From assembly GCA_019359355.1 (NCBI GenBank), contig JAHHHM010000009.1, forward strand, positions 124,001 through 188,000: a stretch of DNA of 64,000 bases, in the 5' to 3' direction. The stretch's first letter is position 1; the number at the start of each line of letters is the position of its first letter. Below the pieces are notes generated by a model. The model did no database searches and was not told the origin of the DNA. It worked only from the letters and a program-made list of their open reading frames with translations. The translations under genes were made by a program, and so were the position numbers. The DNA comes from Microcoleus vaginatus WJT46-NPBG5 (lineage in GTDB: Bacteria > Cyanobacteriota > Cyanobacteriia > Cyanobacteriales > Oscillatoriaceae). Shown here piece by piece: positions 28,892 through 43,322 of the stretch.

Positions 28892-30787
28892 TTAGCGCCC
28901 TAACTCTTGTAAAATAGTTTTTCGTAATTCCTGGCCGTATTTTACGTTTGGATTAATTTTCAGCCCCTTCTCCACAGACTCAAGCGCTTCTTGATTTCGT
29001 CCCTGTAAAACTAGCACTATGCCGCGTCCAAACCAAGTATCAGCATTCTTAGGCTTAATTTGAATGGCCTTGTCATAAGAAGCAACCGCATCTTCGTAGC
29101 GTTTCAACTCAGATAGCGCCATGCCTCGGAGAAGCCAAGCATCAGCATCGTTAGGCTTAAATTGAATGGCCTTGTCATAAGAAGCAACCGCATCTTTGTA
29201 ACGTTTCAAGTCAGATAGCGCATTGCCTCGAAAATACCAAGCATTAGCAAAGTCAGACTTAATTTGAATCGCTTTGTCATAAGAAGCAACCGCATCCTTG
29301 TAGCGTTTCAAATCATCTAGCGCCAAGCCTCGGTTATACCAAGCATTAGCAAGGTCAGAATTAATTTGAACTGTCTTGGCAGAATGCATTTGAATGGCCT
29401 TGTCGTAAGAAGCAACCGCCTCTTCGTAGCGTTTCAAGTGATTTAGCGCATTGCCTCGATTAAACCACCAAGCTGTTGCAGGAATGTCTGACTTAATTTG
29501 AATGGCCTTGTCATAGGAAGCAATCGCCTCTTCATAGCGTTTCAAGTCATATAGCGCATTGCCTCGCTTGAACCAAGCATCAACAAAGCGAGAACTAATT
29601 TGAACTGCCTTGTCGTAAGAAGCAAGCGCATCTTTATAGCGTTTCAAGTCATATAGTGCATTGGCTCGAAAATACCAAGCTATAGCTTTGTCAGGCTTAA
29701 TTTTAACTGCCTTGTCATAAGAAGTAACCGCATCGTTGTAGCGTTTCAAGTGATTTAGCGCAAAGCCTCGGCCAAACCAAGCGTCAGCAAAGTCAGACTT
29801 AATTTGAATCGCCTTGTCATAAGAAGCAACCGCATCTTCGTAGCGTTGCGAGTTAAATAGCGCCTGGCCTCGCTCATACCAAGCCTCAGCAAAGCGAGAA
29901 TTAATTTGAATGGCCTTGTCATAAGCAGCAACCGCATCTTCATTCAATTGAAGCCAATGCAAATTCCGGCCAATATTGAACCAGTCCTTAGCACTTTGTA
30001 CACTAGCAATATCACCGACAGAAACCTTATTAACATTTGCTAGAAATGTTTTCATAGGAATTGCCCACTCAATATCGGGAGTTTCTACCACTCCTCCCTC
30101 ATTGTTCCTATTGACTGCCGAATGTGGTTTTTGCAAAAATTTATTATTAAATAACATCATATAAAAAGCTTTTCCCCTGGGAAGTGCGTGAACTGCCACT
30201 ACATTTCCGATTTTATCAAACACCGGACTTCCACTCATTTCATTGGCAGTAGTAGCATTATAAGAAATAGCATAACCTTCAGTTATGTCTTGGTTTGTTA
30301 ATATACGACTGGAAACGAAGTGGTTATTTATTTTGCCACCCTCAGTCTCTTTTGTAAATCCAGCAATGTAAACATTATCGCCAATTTTAAGATTCTCAGA
30401 ATTACCAAGCTTGAGAGCTTTATAGGGGCAATCTTCACTGCCGGCATCAAATGTCACTACTGCTAAATCATGATTGGGAAAAAGTCGAATTTTGTTAGTT
30501 ATCCAAATTTTTAAATCAGAGGTTTGCAGCCGCACTGGACTACTCATCCCAATGACATGACGTGTAGTTAAAACTGTGCAGACATTCTTTTCCCCATCCA
30601 CAAAAAATCCTGTGCCATTCTCCCCCCGTTTCTCATTGGTAATTAACACAACGCTAGGAGTTAATTTGGTAATATGAGCGGGAGCGAGTAACTTGGAAAC
30701 ACCGGCAGATAATTTTCCTCCAACAGAACAGCCGATAAGAGATAAGCTAACAAAGCTGGAAAAAAGGAATCCGTAACGAAATTTCAT
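28892..30787 (-). CDS. Lipoprotein trypsin-like serine protease with ten TPR repeats
   Basis: A protein of about 631 residues. The N-terminus is a lipoprotein signal with lipobox LIGC (acylated Cys20). Next is a chymotrypsin-fold protease domain with His77 (TTRHVIG), Asp107 (NHDLAVV) and Ser187 (EMSGSPVF) as the triad, and then ten tandem TPR units from about residue 260 to the end, each with AW(Y/F)xRGxAL and AVASYDKAIQI. TPRs would hold substrates or partners while the protein is anchored to a membrane facing the periplasm. The frame opens at a TTG (30799), but GAGGTG before the ATG at 30787 fixes the start. Unit six carries a short extra loop (HSAKTVQINS). The repeats are nearly identical in DNA, suggesting recent expansion. 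Confidence 0.88.
   Translation of the reverse strand: MKFRYGFLFSSFVSLSLIGCSVGGKLSAGVSKLLAPAHITKLTPSVVLITNEKRGENGTGFFVDGEKNVCTVLTTRHVIGMSSPVRLQTSDLKIWITNKIRLFPNHDLAVVTFDAGSEDCPYKALKLGNSENLKIGDNVYIAGFTKETEGGKINNHFVSSRILTNQDITEGYAISYNATTANEMSGSPVFDKIGNVVAVHALPRGKAFYMMLFNNKFLQKPHSAVNRNNEGGVVETPDIEWAIPMKTFLANVNKVSVGDIASVQSAKDWFNIGRNLHWLQLNEDAVAAYDKAIQINSRFAEAWYERGQALFNSQRYEDAVASYDKAIQIKSDFADAWFGRGFALNHLKRYNDAVTSYDKAVKIKPDKAIAWYFRANALYDLKRYKDALASYDKAVQISSRFVDAWFKRGNALYDLKRYEEAIASYDKAIQIKSDIPATAWWFNRGNALNHLKRYEEAVASYDKAIQMHSAKTVQINSDLANAWYNRGLALDDLKRYKDAVASYDKAIQIKSDFANAWYFRGNALSDLKRYKDAVASYDKAIQFKPNDADAWLLRGMALSELKRYEDAVASYDKAIQIKPKNADTWFGRGIVLVLQGRNQEALESVEKGLKINPNVKYGQELRKTILQELGR
28940..29995 (-). 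repeat. Tandem ~102-bp DNA repeats encoding the TPR array
   Basis: Ten 34-codon units repeat with high DNA identity; the phrases CTTGTCATAAGAAGCAACCGCATC and TAGCGTTTCAAG recur in nearly every unit on the plus strand. Such an array can gain or lose units by slippage or recombination. Confidence 0.85.
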
Positions 30788-31331
30788 AGTGCACCTCAAG
30801 AATTTCAGGGTTAAGGCAGAGATGAACCTTTGAGATATTTTTCTCTGTTAATCTATACACCAATGATAATTTTTGAGAAATTACAACTCAAAAATTTACA
30901 GGTTTTAGCTTCGCCAATTGGCATCCGCCGGCAAATTGTTTAAACCTATTTAAATCGGCTACCAAATTCATTGATAACTCATCTTGAGACAACTGTCCCT
31001 AAAATGCCGATGTTTCAACATCAGTATGCACAGATCACAACCCAGTGCGGCCACAATCGCGGCCAGATGGCTGCCGGCGTTACGGCTGCCGGCCTCACAA
31101 TTAACGATTTGGCAAGAATAGGTGCAAAAACAAGCAAGCGTTTTATGGTAAAACAACCAAACTTAGCAGCGAAGTAAACTTTGCGTGTACAGCGCAATCA
31201 TCGGGGTTATTAACTGGCTGGATTGTTTGGTCTGTACTCCGTAGAATCATGTTGCCCTTGATTGCGGCAAACCTGAAGAACTTCACACCACAACCGCCCA
31301 CGCGGCTTCACAATGTTTAAAAAATCACGCC
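30788..31331. other. 544-base spacer between divergent protease and symporter genes
   Basis: No gene is strongly supported. A 68-codon frame at 30971-31177 lacks a ribosome site and a recognisable fold. No riboswitch core was recognised before the amino-acid symporter. Confidence 0.35.
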
Positions 31332-32831: not shown

Positions 32832-33001
32832 GGGAATGGGCATGGGGCTAGGCTGCGCCAACCTTTAGGTACGGGCATGAACTCAGGAATGAGGAATCAG
32901 CAACATTTTTCCCCTCAGCACTCAGCACTAAAAACTCCCCCAATCCCCCATGCCCCATGCCCAATTCCCCATGCCCCATGCCCCATGCCCCATGCCCCAT
33001 G
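32831..33001. repeat. CCCCATG heptanucleotide array with an inverted partner, between convergent genes
   Basis: Seven perfect copies of CCCCATG occupy 32946-33001 with one 7-base interruption (CCCAATT). At 32831-32847 the run GGGGAATGGGCATGGGG is the inverse complement of the array's interrupted unit (17 of 18 positions), so the spacer can fold into a long hairpin. Between the arms are CAGCACT-type short repeats. It sits exactly between the stop codons of the symporter and lipA and may act as a two-way terminator. Confidence 0.75.
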
Positions 33002-33003
33002 CC

Positions 33004-33945
33004 CTATTCCCTCTCCCCGGCATGATAAGAACTGCGAACCAAGGGGCCAGATCGCACGTGGGAAAAGCCCATTTCTGTGGCTATTTCGCCCAGGCGGCTA
33101 AATTCTTCGGGTGTCCAGTATTTTTGCACCGGCAGGTGTTCTAAGGAAGGACGCATATACTGTCCCAAGGTGATGCGATCACAGCCGGCTTCTCGCAAAT
33201 CTGCCATTGCTTCGATAATTTCAGTTTCTGTTTCCCCATGTCCCAGCATTAACCCTGATTTTGTGGGAATGCTGGGATTAATTTCTTTGACGATTCGCAA
33301 CACATCCAGCGACCGCTCATACTTGGCACCCCGGCGCACCGGCCCTTGCAAGCGTTTGACGGTTTCAATATTGTGGTTATAACAGGCGGGATTTGCCTGA
33401 ACGACAGTGTTGATGCGCTGGCGCTGCTGCTGTGCCGGCGAAACTTCCTCAGAATGACCGCCCCAAAAATCGGCGGTGAGGACTTCAATCTCAGTTTGAG
33501 GGTTAAGCCGGCGCACTGCTTCCATTGTCGCTACAAACCAGCCGGCACCACTATCGGGCAAGTCATCTCTAGCAACCGATGTCAGGACAACATAACGTAA
33601 GCCCAACTGCTGCACAGCGTCGGCGACCTTCTGGGGTTCTTCAGGATCTAAAGGCATCGGCGCATGACCTTTATCCACTTGACAAAAGGCGCAGGAGCGC
33701 GTACAAACAGGACCCATCAGCAGAAATGTTGCGGTTTTCTGGGAATAGCACTCCCCTCGGTTGGGACACCGGCCTTCTTCACAAATCGTGTGTATCTGGC
33801 GCTGCTTAATAATTCTTTGAACAGCCGAAAGTTCGCTGGCTTTGCCGATAGGGCGTCGTAGCCACTCTGGCATTGCTTCGATTTCTGCCCTCAGTTGTTT
33901 GTTTGATGATGAGGTTACGGAAGGTTGCTTATTTTGCTTAGGCAT
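33004..33945 (-). CDS. lipA: Lipoyl synthase
   Basis: A 313-residue radical-SAM enzyme that inserts two sulphurs into protein-bound octanoyl groups to make lipoyl cofactor. Both iron-sulphur clusters are visible: the auxiliary cluster in [12 protein letters not shown] (Cys55, 60, 66) and the radical-SAM cluster in CTRSCAFC (Cys81, 85, 88). RSSYHAGE at the C-terminus carries the conserved serine that ligates the auxiliary cluster. The frame is open upstream to 33987, but the ATG at 33945 gives the usual family length. An insertion ([13 protein letters not shown]) follows ADFWGGH and is not usual. No lipB is adjacent. Confidence 0.95.
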
Positions 33946-38527: not shown

Positions 38528-41500
38528 TCAACCTTCTTCGGACGGGGAAGCATCGGGCAAATGTTGAACGAGGTGCATAACTGTATCAAAACTTGCCTGG
38601 TCGATATTGCCAAGCATATTTGCTAATGTCTCAGGAGATTGGTAGAGCGGCAGCGAAACTGTGAAACTCGAACCCTGGCCGCTGTTAGATTTTAAGGTAA
38701 TAGAACCGCCGTGGAGTTCCGCTAATTTACGAGTAATCACCAAACCGAGTCCCGTTCCGTGATACTTGCGAGACAAAGAAGAATCGATTTGTGAAAAGGG
38801 AGAAAAAAGCCGAAGTTGGTCAACTTCATCAATACCAATGCCGGTGTCCCAAACTTGAAAGTGAATGGTTTCAGGTGTAGAAACGTTACATTCATCCTCT
38901 TCTTTTGTCTCGTTTCGGGTGCGATAAATTTTTAGACCCACGGTGCCTTGCGGGGTAAACTTGATGGCATTGGTTAGCAAATTCAACAGCATTTGTTTCA
39001 GCCGGCGGGGATCTGTAACCATGTATTCCAAGTCAGGTTCTACATCTACATCCAAGTTTAAACCGTGGTTCATGATTCGCTCTTGAACTAAGCTAATCAC
39101 ACTTTCACAAATATCTTGGATAAACACAATTTGCGGCTCTAATTCCAGACGATCCGCCTCAATGCGTGACAAGTCTAGAATGTCATTAATCAGTTCTAAT
39201 AAGTGTTCGCCACTGCTGTGAATGCGGTCAACATACAGCATTTGTTTGGGATTGAGTTTGCCGAAAGATTCCTCTAGCAGCACGCTGGAGAAGCCAAGAA
39301 TCGCAGTCAGGGGCGTGCGAAGTTCGTGGCTAGTCGTGGCAATGAATTCTTCTTTGAGACGGTTAACTTCTGCAAGCTGATAATTTTGTTCTTGCAGCAA
39401 CCGCCACTGCTGCCTGATTTCCGTGACATCTTGACCAAAGCCAATGACGCGATGAATGGTGCCGGTGGCGTCTGTAATCGGTGAGTAAACCGTTTCAAAT
39501 GTGCGAGTGCCGGTGGGGAGGGAAATTTCGTGATTGAAAACAACTTTTTGGCCGGTGCTAAACACATGATGAATTAATGGTTCAATCGTACCGGCGTCAG
39601 CTCCTAATAGCTGCCGATTGGTTTGGCCAATAATTTCACTCTGTGGTTTGCCGATTAAAGATGCTCCCGCTGGGTTGATGGAAAGGTAGCACAACTGCCG
39701 GTCGTATTCGACAAACACATCCGTTGATTGTTCTAAGAATAAGCGGAAGTATTCTGCACTGAGGCGCTGTTCGTGTTCTTGCCGGTATAGACGCGCTTGA
39801 CGGATAGCGATCGCACACTGAGAAGCCACCTGCTCTACTAAGTTAATTTCCTTGGCTTGAAACCGGCGGTGACTGGTATGAAACACGCACACCACCCCAA
39901 TTAACCCTTGGTTATCCAAAATCGGACTAATTAGCAAAGATACTACCGTCGCAGCCTCCAAGAATTGTGCGCCCGGTGTATCCTCAACCTTAGAACTTTC
40001 GGTTAGCGGCATCGGAACTTCGTGAATGCACGGTTGGCCGGCAAAGAGCCTGGTTTGGAACTGTTCAGGCCAATCTTGCAGAGACGAACGCGATCCAATC
40101 AGCGGCGCGGCTAGTTGAAGTGAGCCGATCAAGTATTGAGAACGCACCTCAAAGACTTGCTGCCCCTCATCAAACAAACTGGCGTAACAACCATCAACAC
40201 CCAAGGTATTCGCCAAACCTTCCACCGCAATTTTTAGCATTTGGTCTTCACCCAGCGATTGCAGCAGTGCTTCAGTCAGCTGGCGGATCAGCTGCTCAAA
40301 TTTCAGCGATTGTTCTAAAGAGCGTGTTCGCTGGTTAACCCGGTTTTCCAATTCATGGGCGTAGGCTTGTAGCTGGTGCACCAGATTGGCTTGCTCAATG
40401 GCAATGGCCAACTGATTGGCAACTGCTTGCAAAAGCTGCTGTTCGTCAGCCGTCCACTGTCGGGGGGCGTGACATTGATGAACCACCAATAAACCCCACA
40501 AAGGAGGAATGGAGGGCCGGCGGAGCGCATTGCCGGCATCGTGCCCGGAGCCATTTTCCTGAAAGTTTCCGCTGCTACGATGCCCCGCGCCTTCGGTACG
40601 TTGAATGGCCACTGCCATCATGCTACGAACTTGCATTTGCCGTAGCATTTTCTGGTGACATTCGGCAAGTTCTTCTGTCCAAACATCGGTTACACTCCAC
40701 AGACGCCCGTTGCGATAGGCTTCCAAATAAGGCGGGGGAATACACTCTGCGGAGAACGACATCCCCTTAAGGGTCGGATAAATGGCATGAACGTCTTCCG
40801 CAACACAGATTCCGCTGCTTGACAAATTTGGGTTAACCTGGGCAAGCCCTGGCACGCTAAGCTCAACTAACGAATCGTCAACTAGCTGATAAGCTAAAAC
40901 TCGGTCTGCACCCAGTGCCTGTCTAAGACGCTGGACTGCTGTTTGCAAAATCGCATCGAGATCAAATGTCGCACGGATTTTAGCGGAAATTTCACTTAAG
41001 AGGGCTTCACGCTCCCGCCGCTGCTGGATCTCGTGTTCAGCTCGTTGGTGTTCGCTCAAGTCTGTGACAAAACTCAGCAAGTAGCTTTCTTCTACCTCTT
41101 CGCCGATCAGCGACATTGCCACTTCTGCTGTAATAAAGGAACCGTCCCGCCGCAGATATCGTTTGCGAAGAGTTTGACGTTTGCTGCCGCCGTTCAGCAT
41201 TTGTTGAATGACTCTCACCTCAACCGCAAAATCTTCTGGATGAGAAATTGACCGGCGATCTAAATGCCGCAACTGGGTTTGGCTGTAACCTGTGAGGCGA
41301 CAAAATGCTGGATTGGCGCTCAGGATACCGCCATCCATGCTTTCGTAGAGAATGCCGATCGGGGCTTCCCAGAATAAGTTGTTAATGCTCTCATCCGGGC
41401 TGAATTTGGCCTGAGGTGTGCCGGCTGCTAAGGGATGAGGATTGCCTGGAATTCTAGTTTGTGAAACAGGTGGCGAATTAGGCAAGGATGAAGCTTGTTG

Positions 41501-42283
41501 TTCTAAGTTGTTAACGTTTGACTTTTCAGCTTCTTGATTGCTCTTAATCGGTTCTTCTTGCGGGTGTTCGGTAACATCAGCGCTATTTTCTCCGACGACT
41601 CCTAACAGTTGTAACCAAACCCGGCGGAGCACGTTGCTGTGATTGTTAAGGTCTGTTGCGTTTAATTCTGAGCAATGAGGTGCCGCTGCTGCTACTGCTG
41701 GGGTGCCCAGCAACTTGACGATAACTTGTGGGTCGAAGTTTAAAGAAACTTGCCAAATCGGGCTTGTTACGGATGCAGATAGAAACTCTGTTTCTGAAGA
41801 TTGCGCTGGGGAAAATGAAGGATGAATTTGCTGAGGATGTTGTGAGTTGAGGCTTGTTGGAGCCGGCTCTAGGTGAATCCAAATATTGAGGCAAGAACTT
41901 AAGATAATTAAACTTGCCTCTACTTCAGCCAAATCAATTAACTGGAAGGTTGTCAACTGAGGCGTCCCGGTCGATTCTGGGTTGCCGGCTGAGCCTTTTG
42001 AGGGTTCGTTGTTGGCTGTTTTAGTAGATACCGGCTGATCGGGATTTTTGCTGCCGGCAAGCCGCATCAGCAGTTTTGGGTCAAGGCTTTCTTGGGCTTT
42101 TTGGGCGGCTTCCCACCAGGTTTGCGCTAAACTCTGACAGAGTTCTCTATTTTTGCCGGCAGCCAATAACGTCCGCAGCCGACCACTGGATGCGACGGCT
42201 GTTTGTAACATTTCTACTAAAGAACACACTCTGGGCCAAGTCAAATGCAGGATAATTTGACTTGGTAAAGTTAAATAGCTCAT
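38528..42283 (-). CDS. Large multi-sensor histidine kinase (PAS-GAF-GAF-PAS-HisKA-HATPase)
   Basis: A 1251-residue soluble kinase. Residues 1-320 are low-similarity with Ser/Gln/Pro-rich stretches. A PAS domain (about 320-440, ESMDGGILSANPAFCRLTGYS), a GAF (about 450-640, GADRVLAYQL), a second GAF (about 690-850), another PAS (about 860-970), then the dimerisation box FIATTSHELRTPL with His986, and an ATPase domain (NLLTNAIKFT, VWDTGIGI, GTGLGLVI) follow. The end is a short tail with no receiver. The first GAF resembles bilin-type GAF domains in phytochrome relatives, but I cannot confirm a chromophore cysteine. The signal and partner are unknown. Confidence 0.9.
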   Translation of the reverse strand: MSYLTLPSQIILHLTWPRVCSLVEMLQTAVASSGRLRTLLAAGKNRELCQSLAQTWWEAAQKAQESLDPKLLMRLAGSKNPDQPVSTKTANNEPSKGSAGNPESTGTPQLTTFQLIDLAEVEASLIILSSCLNIWIHLEPAPTSLNSQHPQQIHPSFSPAQSSETEFLSASVTSPIWQVSLNFDPQVIVKLLGTPAVAAAAPHCSELNATDLNNHSNVLRRVWLQLLGVVGENSADVTEHPQEEPIKSNQEAEKSNVNNLEQQASSLPNSPPVSQTRIPGNPHPLAAGTPQAKFSPDESINNLFWEAPIGILYESMDGGILSANPAFCRLTGYSQTQLRHLDRRSISHPEDFAVEVRVIQQMLNGGSKRQTLRKRYLRRDGSFITAEVAMSLIGEEVEESYLLSFVTDLSEHQRAEHEIQQRREREALLSEISAKIRATFDLDAILQTAVQRLRQALGADRVLAYQLVDDSLVELSVPGLAQVNPNLSSSGICVAEDVHAIYPTLKGMSFSAECIPPPYLEAYRNGRLWSVTDVWTEELAECHQKMLRQMQVRSMMAVAIQRTEGAGHRSSGNFQENGSGHDAGNALRRPSIPPLWGLLVVHQCHAPRQWTADEQQLLQAVANQLAIAIEQANLVHQLQAYAHELENRVNQRTRSLEQSLKFEQLIRQLTEALLQSLGEDQMLKIAVEGLANTLGVDGCYASLFDEGQQVFEVRSQYLIGSLQLAAPLIGSRSSLQDWPEQFQTRLFAGQPCIHEVPMPLTESSKVEDTPGAQFLEAATVVSLLISPILDNQGLIGVVCVFHTSHRRFQAKEINLVEQVASQCAIAIRQARLYRQEHEQRLSAEYFRLFLEQSTDVFVEYDRQLCYLSINPAGASLIGKPQSEIIGQTNRQLLGADAGTIEPLIHHVFSTGQKVVFNHEISLPTGTRTFETVYSPITDATGTIHRVIGFGQDVTEIRQQWRLLQEQNYQLAEVNRLKEEFIATTSHELRTPLTAILGFSSVLLEESFGKLNPKQMLYVDRIHSSGEHLLELINDILDLSRIEADRLELEPQIVFIQDICESVISLVQERIMNHGLNLDVDVEPDLEYMVTDPRRLKQMLLNLLTNAIKFTPQGTVGLKIYRTRNETKEEDECNVSTPETIHFQVWDTGIGIDEVDQLRLFSPFSQIDSSLSRKYHGTGLGLVITRKLAELHGGSITLKSNSGQGSSFTVSLPLYQSPETLANMLGNIDQASFDTVMHLVQHLPDASPSEEG

Positions 42284-42872: not shown

Positions 42873-43154
42873 TCAGGGGCCGTCACCACCCTGTGAATAA
42901 CGCACAATTCCATCAGCAGACTCTGCATAATAGCTGCCGTCCGCGTCTTGATAATAGAGATTGCCCTTGGCGTCTATCGCTGCGATGTTCCCCTGAGAGT
43001 CTTCAGTATAAAGGGTTCCGTCTGCATCGACTGCTGTATAATTTCCTTCAACATCCACTACTTCGGCATTCCCCCCAGCATCCTCTATATACACATTCCC
43101 CTCGGCATCCTCTCCATAAGAATTGCCTTCCGAGTCGTATTGTGTGTAAACCAT
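42873..43154 (-). CDS. Small acidic protein built of nine-residue tandem repeats
   Basis: From the ATG at 43154 (AAGGA 8 bases upstream) the protein is 93 residues. After MVYTQY it consists of nine consecutive 9-residue units of the form D-x-x-G-N/T/S-x-x-x-x: DSEGNSYGE, DAEGNVYIE, DAGGNAEVV, DVEGNYTAV, DADGTLYTE, DSQGNIAAI, DAKGNLYYQ, DADGSYYAE and a last partial SADGIVRY. Asp and Gly are invariant in eight units, with aromatic or hydrophobic residues near the end, which suggests a small beta-solenoid or calcium-binding repeat. It is strongly acidic, has no signal peptide, and matches no family I can name. It lies divergently next to speA, 168 bases away. Confidence 0.7.
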   Translation of the reverse strand: MVYTQYDSEGNSYGEDAEGNVYIEDAGGNAEVVDVEGNYTAVDADGTLYTEDSQGNIAAIDAKGNLYYQDADGSYYAESADGIVRYSQGGDGP

Positions 43155-43322
43155 CAAAACAGTCCTTCCTTGCAGACCTGATGGGTCGTATTCTAACAAA
43201 GGGTTGAGAAAGCTTTCTGAAAGCCATCTAAAGATTGAATGAAGGCTTTTCTCCCCTCAGCTTGCTGTGGATGAATGCGATAAACTGTCACTCTACAGGT
43301 CAAAAGCGAGGACACTTCTAGT

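What the first reader, a model, noticed from the sequence alone, without database searches (positions are those of the whole stretch)
42873..43154. 93-residue protein composed of nine 9-residue DxxGN repeats
Almost the whole protein is a regular nine-residue repeat with invariant Asp and Gly in eight units. No family is recognised. Such regular short repeats form beta-solenoids or calcium-binding sheets. It sits divergently beside speA with a good ribosome site.
Basis: seen in the sequence. Interest (0 to 1): 0.6.

Follow-up and report, generated by a model that had tools for sequence, protein, structure and literature searches.

The report
Bacterial protein of one bare beta-sheet
A small cyanobacterial protein is almost nothing but ten short strands zig-zagging into one bare sheet, a predicted shape otherwise best known from an animal centriole protein; its job is unknown but its sequence is conserved in every species of its genus that was held here.

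Summary
Window 43154-42873 (-) encodes a 93-aa acidic protein (pI 4.05) made of nine 9-residue units; D..G recurs eight times in exact register, and the longest run in 200,000 shuffles was four. It is a real gene: both other species held of the genus carry it with 93% identity, the same unit number, start codon and gene order, and dN/dS of 0.14-0.23. No relative passed E<=1e-4 in 388 other genomes of the order. AlphaFold2 gives ten 4-residue strands at exact 9-residue spacing (best-model pLDDT 88.9), and the best solved match is the free-standing, single-layer antiparallel meander of the CPAP/Sas-4 G-box (VIA Z 10.8, 91 residues, 1.9 A); OspA and MORN sheets follow. No Pfam family fits, Tcp10_C included. 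A secreted cyanobacterial set with the same repeat and 6-9 units also models as such a sheet, but sequence scores cannot tell kinship from convergence. Function is inferred: a soluble single-sheet binding or assembly scaffold. A new variant of a known, rare fold class; moderately interesting.

The parts
42873..43154 (-). 93-aa ORF, nine 9-residue D-x-x-G-N units plus N-terminal strand and short tail
42894..43136 (-). the nine repeat units (residues 7-87), 27 bp each; predicted turn D-x-x-G, strand N-a-b-c-d
   Evidence: units; strands at 9-residue spacing
43155..43322 (.). 168-bp divergent intergenic region to speA, 99.4% and 96.4% identical to the two congeners, more than the ORF and (against G002) more than speA; presumed promoters and leaders of both genes; ribosome site just before 43154
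   Evidence: no Rfam family reached its gathering score
43323..45332 (+). speA-type arginine decarboxylase, divergent neighbour
   Evidence: synteny
38528..42283 (-). PAS/GAF sensor histidine kinase, next gene downstream on the same strand, 589 bp away; synteny kept in the genus

Best explanation
The gene makes a small, soluble, cytosolic, very acidic protein that folds as one free-standing single-layer antiparallel beta-sheet of about ten strands. In each unit D-x-x-G makes a tight turn (type I plus G1 bulge is my reading) and the next five residues make a strand, so turns alternate between the two edges and strands stack in exact register. By alternation of side chains, positions a and c of N-a-b-c-d form one mostly hydrophobic face (S/G V/I A/V Y/A L/T I/A L/Y Y/A V/Y), and position b runs down the middle of the other as a tyrosine-rich ladder (Y Y E T Y A Y Y R) flanked by Asn and Glu. 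The most likely job is a binding or assembly scaffold: it captures a partner along its aromatic edge or face as the CPAP G-box captures STIL, or pairs with itself through the hydrophobic face or open end strands. Shown: gene, repeat, conservation, predicted strands, fold match. Inferred: location, faces, partner binding. Not known: the partner and any link to polyamine synthesis.
For: Real and selected: orthologues in G001 and G002, 93% identical, same unit number, dN/dS 0.23, 0.14, 0.17 by NG86 (0.27-0.45 by YN00), ORF DNA 92-95% identical against 84-86% in the non-coding DNA downstream, gene order kept. Fold: AF2 best model pLDDT 88.9, ten strands at residues 3-6, 12-15, 21-24 ... 84-87. VIA-align puts CPAP/Sas-4 G-box chains at the top (4lzf Z 10.8, 91 residues, 1.9 A; 4ld3 Z 10.2, 1.5 A), then OspA single-layer sheet and MORN proteins. 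The CPAP paper describes a free-standing single-layer meander on type I turns with PDG motifs, no hydrophobic core, stable alone, binding a proline motif through edge aromatics (PMC3776556). A second cyanobacterial protein with the same repeat gives the same model, pLDDT 95-97 over the sheet, again with CPAP on top. No signal peptide is visible in MVYTQYDSEGN.
Against: The alignment had only 3 near-identical sequences, and two of the five AF2 models were weak (pLDDT about 60); AF2 can regularise perfect repeats. A single-layer sheet alone may be unstable. No expression data, no partner, no experiment. Coordinates were not inspected, so antiparallel order rests on the match to CPAP. Face assignment is geometry on paper.
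Confidence: 0.5

Rival explanations
1. Self-assembling, amyloid-like filament subunit: the two open edge strands of each sheet pair end to end, giving a functional protein fibre in the cytosol.
For: Free-standing sheet with exposed end strands and exact register; CPAP authors note the resemblance to amyloid-fibril sheets and engineered OspA self-assembly mimics.
Against: CPAP G-box itself is mainly monomeric in solution. High negative charge (-18) disfavours close packing without counter-ions.
Confidence: 0.2
2. Divalent-cation (Ca2+ or Mg2+) or polyamine-responsive protein: a disordered acidic chain that folds when cations bind the Asp-lined edges, perhaps coupled to the divergent arginine decarboxylase gene.
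For: 20 acidic against 2 basic residues; Asp invariant at the turns; divergent promoter region 96-99% conserved; the neighbour presumably starts polyamine synthesis.
Against: No RTX, EF-hand or TSP3 motif. In D-x-x-G turns the Asp side chain normally caps the turn, which explains its conservation without a metal. The neighbour link is adjacency only; speA lacks the ORF in sister genera.
Confidence: 0.15
3. Young orphan gene with little or no function, kept by chance for a short time in one genus.
For: No match passing E<=1e-4 outside the genus in the order sample; sister genera have a different gene (ndk-like) beside speA.
Against: dN/dS well below 1 by NG86, nearly all changes in turn or small side-chain positions, unit number fixed, ribosome site conserved.
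Confidence: 0.1
4. Beta-solenoid, as first proposed.
For: Short regular repeat.
Against: Model is a sheet whose strands match antiparallel meanders, not coils.
Confidence: 0.03

Closest known systems
CPAP/Sas-4 G-box (TCP10 C-terminal domain, Pfam PF07202)
   Same: Best structural match; free-standing single-layer antiparallel meander, short hairpins on turns with DG, no hydrophobic core, stands alone.
   Different: CPAP has about 20 strands as the tail of a large eukaryotic centriole protein and uses PDG turns; here 10 strands are the whole protein. No sequence match to PF07202 in this genome.
OspA central sheet of Borrelia and engineered OspA variants
   Same: Single-layer bacterial beta-sheet.
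   Different: OspA's sheet is capped at both ends by globular domains, is lipidated and surface-exposed; repeats are not 9-residue DxxGN.
MORN repeat proteins
   Same: Meander of hairpins, matched at Z 8-9.5.
   Different: 23-residue units with YxGEWxxGxxxGxG consensus, absent here.
Secreted cyanobacterial DxxGN repeat proteins (Oculatella LEGE 06141, FACHB-471 and others; L219-L226, L231)
   Same: 9-residue D/E-x-x-G-N/S repeat, about 100 aa, same AF2 sheet.
   Different: Have a signal peptide and 6-9 units, other gene neighbours; similarity is no higher than to an unrelated Staphylococcus repeat protein, so kinship is open.
RTX nonapeptide repeats
   Same: Nine residues, Asp and Gly rich.
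   Different: GGxGxDxUx consensus absent; RTX forms a parallel roll in secreted proteins.

Membership tests
Tcp10_C / CPAP G-box (PF07202) | match to the Pfam model over its cut-off | tested here: not met
   not among hits of the protein at E<=10; no hit in this genome at E<=1
Tcp10_C / CPAP G-box (PF07202) | free-standing single-layer antiparallel meander | tested here: met
   prediction only: Z 10.8 over 91 residues
Tcp10_C / CPAP G-box (PF07202) | binds a PRxxPxP motif | not testable with these tools
   needs a binding assay
RTX nonapeptide repeat | GGxGxDxUx repeats | tested here: not met
   no match, also with loose G.G.D
EF-hand or TSP3 calcium repeats | D-x-D-x-D-G loop | tested here: not met
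   no D.D.D or D.D.DG
MORN repeat | 23-residue YxGEWxxGxxxGxG unit | tested here: not met
   pattern absent; no Pfam hit
Secreted cyanobacterial DxxGN proteins | N-terminal signal peptide | tested here: not met
   window protein starts MVYTQYDSEGN; L093 and L068 start MKNLLVLGGIALYSL or similar; read by eye, no signal-peptide program
Secreted cyanobacterial DxxGN proteins | sequence kinship beyond the shared repeat | tested here: inconclusive
   hhalign 96.5% but a Staphylococcus repeat protein scores higher (175 against 134)
NHL or PQQ beta-propeller | Pfam NHL or PQQ match over cut-off and about 40-residue blades | tested here: not met
   NHL E 0.16, 12.5 bits, under the cut-off of 20; PDB sequence hits to propellers align mainly at the D-x-x-G turns

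The most novel reading that the evidence does not exclude
Bacteria have repeatedly made whole proteins that are a single free-standing beta-sheet from a 9-residue D-x-x-G-N-x-x-x-x unit, in the cytosol and outside the cell. This is an undescribed class of the fold that was called unique to the CPAP G-box among natural proteins, and this gene is its smallest clean cytosolic case.
Probability: 0.4. Interest if true: 0.65.

Novelty: new variant of a known kind. Interest (0 to 1): 0.42.

Why it matters
The authors of the CPAP structure called a stand-alone meander sheet without a core unique among natural proteins (PMC3776556). A 93-residue bacterial protein that is nothing else would be a minimal natural model for how a single-layer sheet stays soluble and avoids aggregation, and a ready scaffold for design. 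It also points to an unannotated class of small repeat proteins in bacteria and archaea.

Tried and rejected
Pfam, NCBIfam and PHROGs scans: only weak chance hits (NDUFA12, SSL_N). PDB sequence hits to beta-propellers and designed Pizza/Cake proteins share mainly the D-x-x-G turn. The second hits in the genus (G000:C38, G001:C5, G002:C20) are an alternative reading frame of a proline-rich TPGQP repeat protein, not paralogues. Peptide-pattern scan of genome contigs found no relative. Plasmids and phages: no match. The exact D..G x5 pattern over 386 genomes of the phylum matched 9 genomes, the other eight in unrelated low-complexity repeats. Rfam: only sub-threshold chance hits. No promoter signal above shuffles. 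Opposite-strand frames: one plus-strand frame is also open (116 aa in the window), read as a by-product of the repeat; the minus frame has the start, ribosome site and AF2 support.

Full report
What is there. The minus strand from 43154 to 42873 encodes 93 residues: MVYTQY, then nine 9-residue units with Asp at position 1 (8 of 9), Gly at 4 (9 of 9) and Asn, Ser or Thr at 5 (8 of 9), then a short tail. The run of eight in-register D..G pairs is far beyond chance: the longest in 200,000 shuffles was four. The 27-bp DNA units are 53% alike on average and not called by Tandem Repeats Finder, so the pattern is kept at protein level rather than freshly duplicated.

It is a gene. Two other species of the genus, the only ones held, have it at 93% identity with the same number of units, in the same order histidine kinase - ORF - speA - nucleotidyltransferase-like gene. 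dN/dS by NG86 is 0.23, 0.14 and 0.17 (YN00 gives 0.27-0.45, so the estimate is rough on 13-22 differences). The AGGA ribosome site and ATG are conserved. A stop in one species five codons upstream rules out the longer TTG start. ORF identity is 92-95%, the non-coding DNA downstream 84-86%, and the 168-bp region shared with speA 96-99%. That region is not found in other genera except for its last 47 bases before speA.

Where it is not. A profile search of 391 genomes of the order returned only these three at E<=1e-4. In sister genera speA has an ndk-like gene (nucleoside diphosphate kinase; named from sequence, not scanned), a transposase-like gene or short ORFs upstream and no such ORF. So the gene is restricted to the genus among the genomes searched.

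What it looks like. AlphaFold2 on the three orthologues gave a best model of pLDDT 88.9 with ten 4-residue strands exactly nine residues apart and no helix; three of five models were above 82, two near 60. Foldseek and VIA-align both put the CPAP/Sas-4/TCP10 G-box first (4lzf Z 10.8, 91 residues, 1.9 A; 4ld3 Z 10.2, 1.5 A), then OspA single-layer sheets and MORN proteins. Unrelated rows start near Z 7-8, so the lead is real but not huge, and a shared fold shows no shared function. The CPAP paper calls its domain a single layer of about 20 antiparallel strands on type I turns, often PDG, without hydrophobic core, both faces wet, stable alone, mainly monomeric, and unique among natural proteins; it binds STIL prolines through edge aromatics (PMC3776556). 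This matches the anatomy here, D-x-x-G turn plus five-residue strand, and not a solenoid. RTX, EF-hand, TSP3 and MORN consensus motifs are absent. There is no match to Tcp10_C by sequence, so I do not file it as a member; it works like one at most.

Wider class. A scan for three DxxGN in 9-residue register found many proteins: Nitrosocosmicus archaea, Staphylococcus pettenkoferi, a Micavibrio protein with a run of 20 units, Eubacteriales, and a secreted cyanobacterial set. The last, about 100 aa with a signal peptide and 6-9 units, was found in eight cyanobacterial genomes, two of them near copies of the first hits, and its sheet models at pLDDT 95-97 with CPAP again on top. But pairwise scores to the window protein are highest for the Staphylococcus protein (175) and lower for the cyanobacterial ones (107-134), so convergence on the same turn-strand unit is as likely as descent.

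How it may work. Reading side-chain alternation on five-residue strands N-a-b-c-d, a and c make a mainly hydrophobic face; N, b and d make the other, with b-b pairs forming a central ladder Y Y E T Y A Y Y R. Differences between the species fall mostly in turn residues and in Gly/Ala/Ser/Thr positions. I infer a scaffold that binds a partner or itself through the hydrophobic face or aromatic ladder; the net charge of -18 should keep it soluble. The position beside speA suggests shared control but nothing shows a polyamine role.

Verdict. Function is unproven.

Noticed in passing
L219-L226, L231; L093:1903-2238 +, L068:7039-7356 -: Secreted cyanobacterial proteins of about 100 aa with the same 9-residue repeat and 6-9 units, no Pfam family over cut-off; AF2 gives a nine-strand sheet at pLDDT 95-97.
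   Followed up: partly
window 43155-43322: 168-bp intergenic region between the ORF and speA is 99.4% and 96.4% identical in the genus, more than the ORF itself; no Rfam match over threshold; only its last 47 bases recur in one sister genus.
   Followed up: partly
L020, L026, L064: Nitrosocosmicus archaea carry a probably secreted protein with TDENGNAYYKDENGNAYYK repeats and a His-rich tail; no Pfam hit (L064).
   Followed up: no
L052, first match at 1135 (-): Micavibrio protein of at least 1419 aa with a run of 20 in-register DENGNPxxY-like units, a giant version of the repeat.
   Followed up: no
G000:C38 near 130589-130798 (L002), L008, L011: Secreted proline-rich TPGQPAATPTPGQP repeat protein whose repeat number differs among the three species of the genus.
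   Followed up: no
window 29032-29941, inside ORF 28892-30799 (-): Near-identical 102-bp (34-aa, TPR-like) tandem repeats, 79-85% alike, suggesting recent expansion.
   Followed up: no
window 32939-33011: Array of the heptamer CCCCATG, about 8 copies, non-coding or at the end of an ORF.
   Followed up: no
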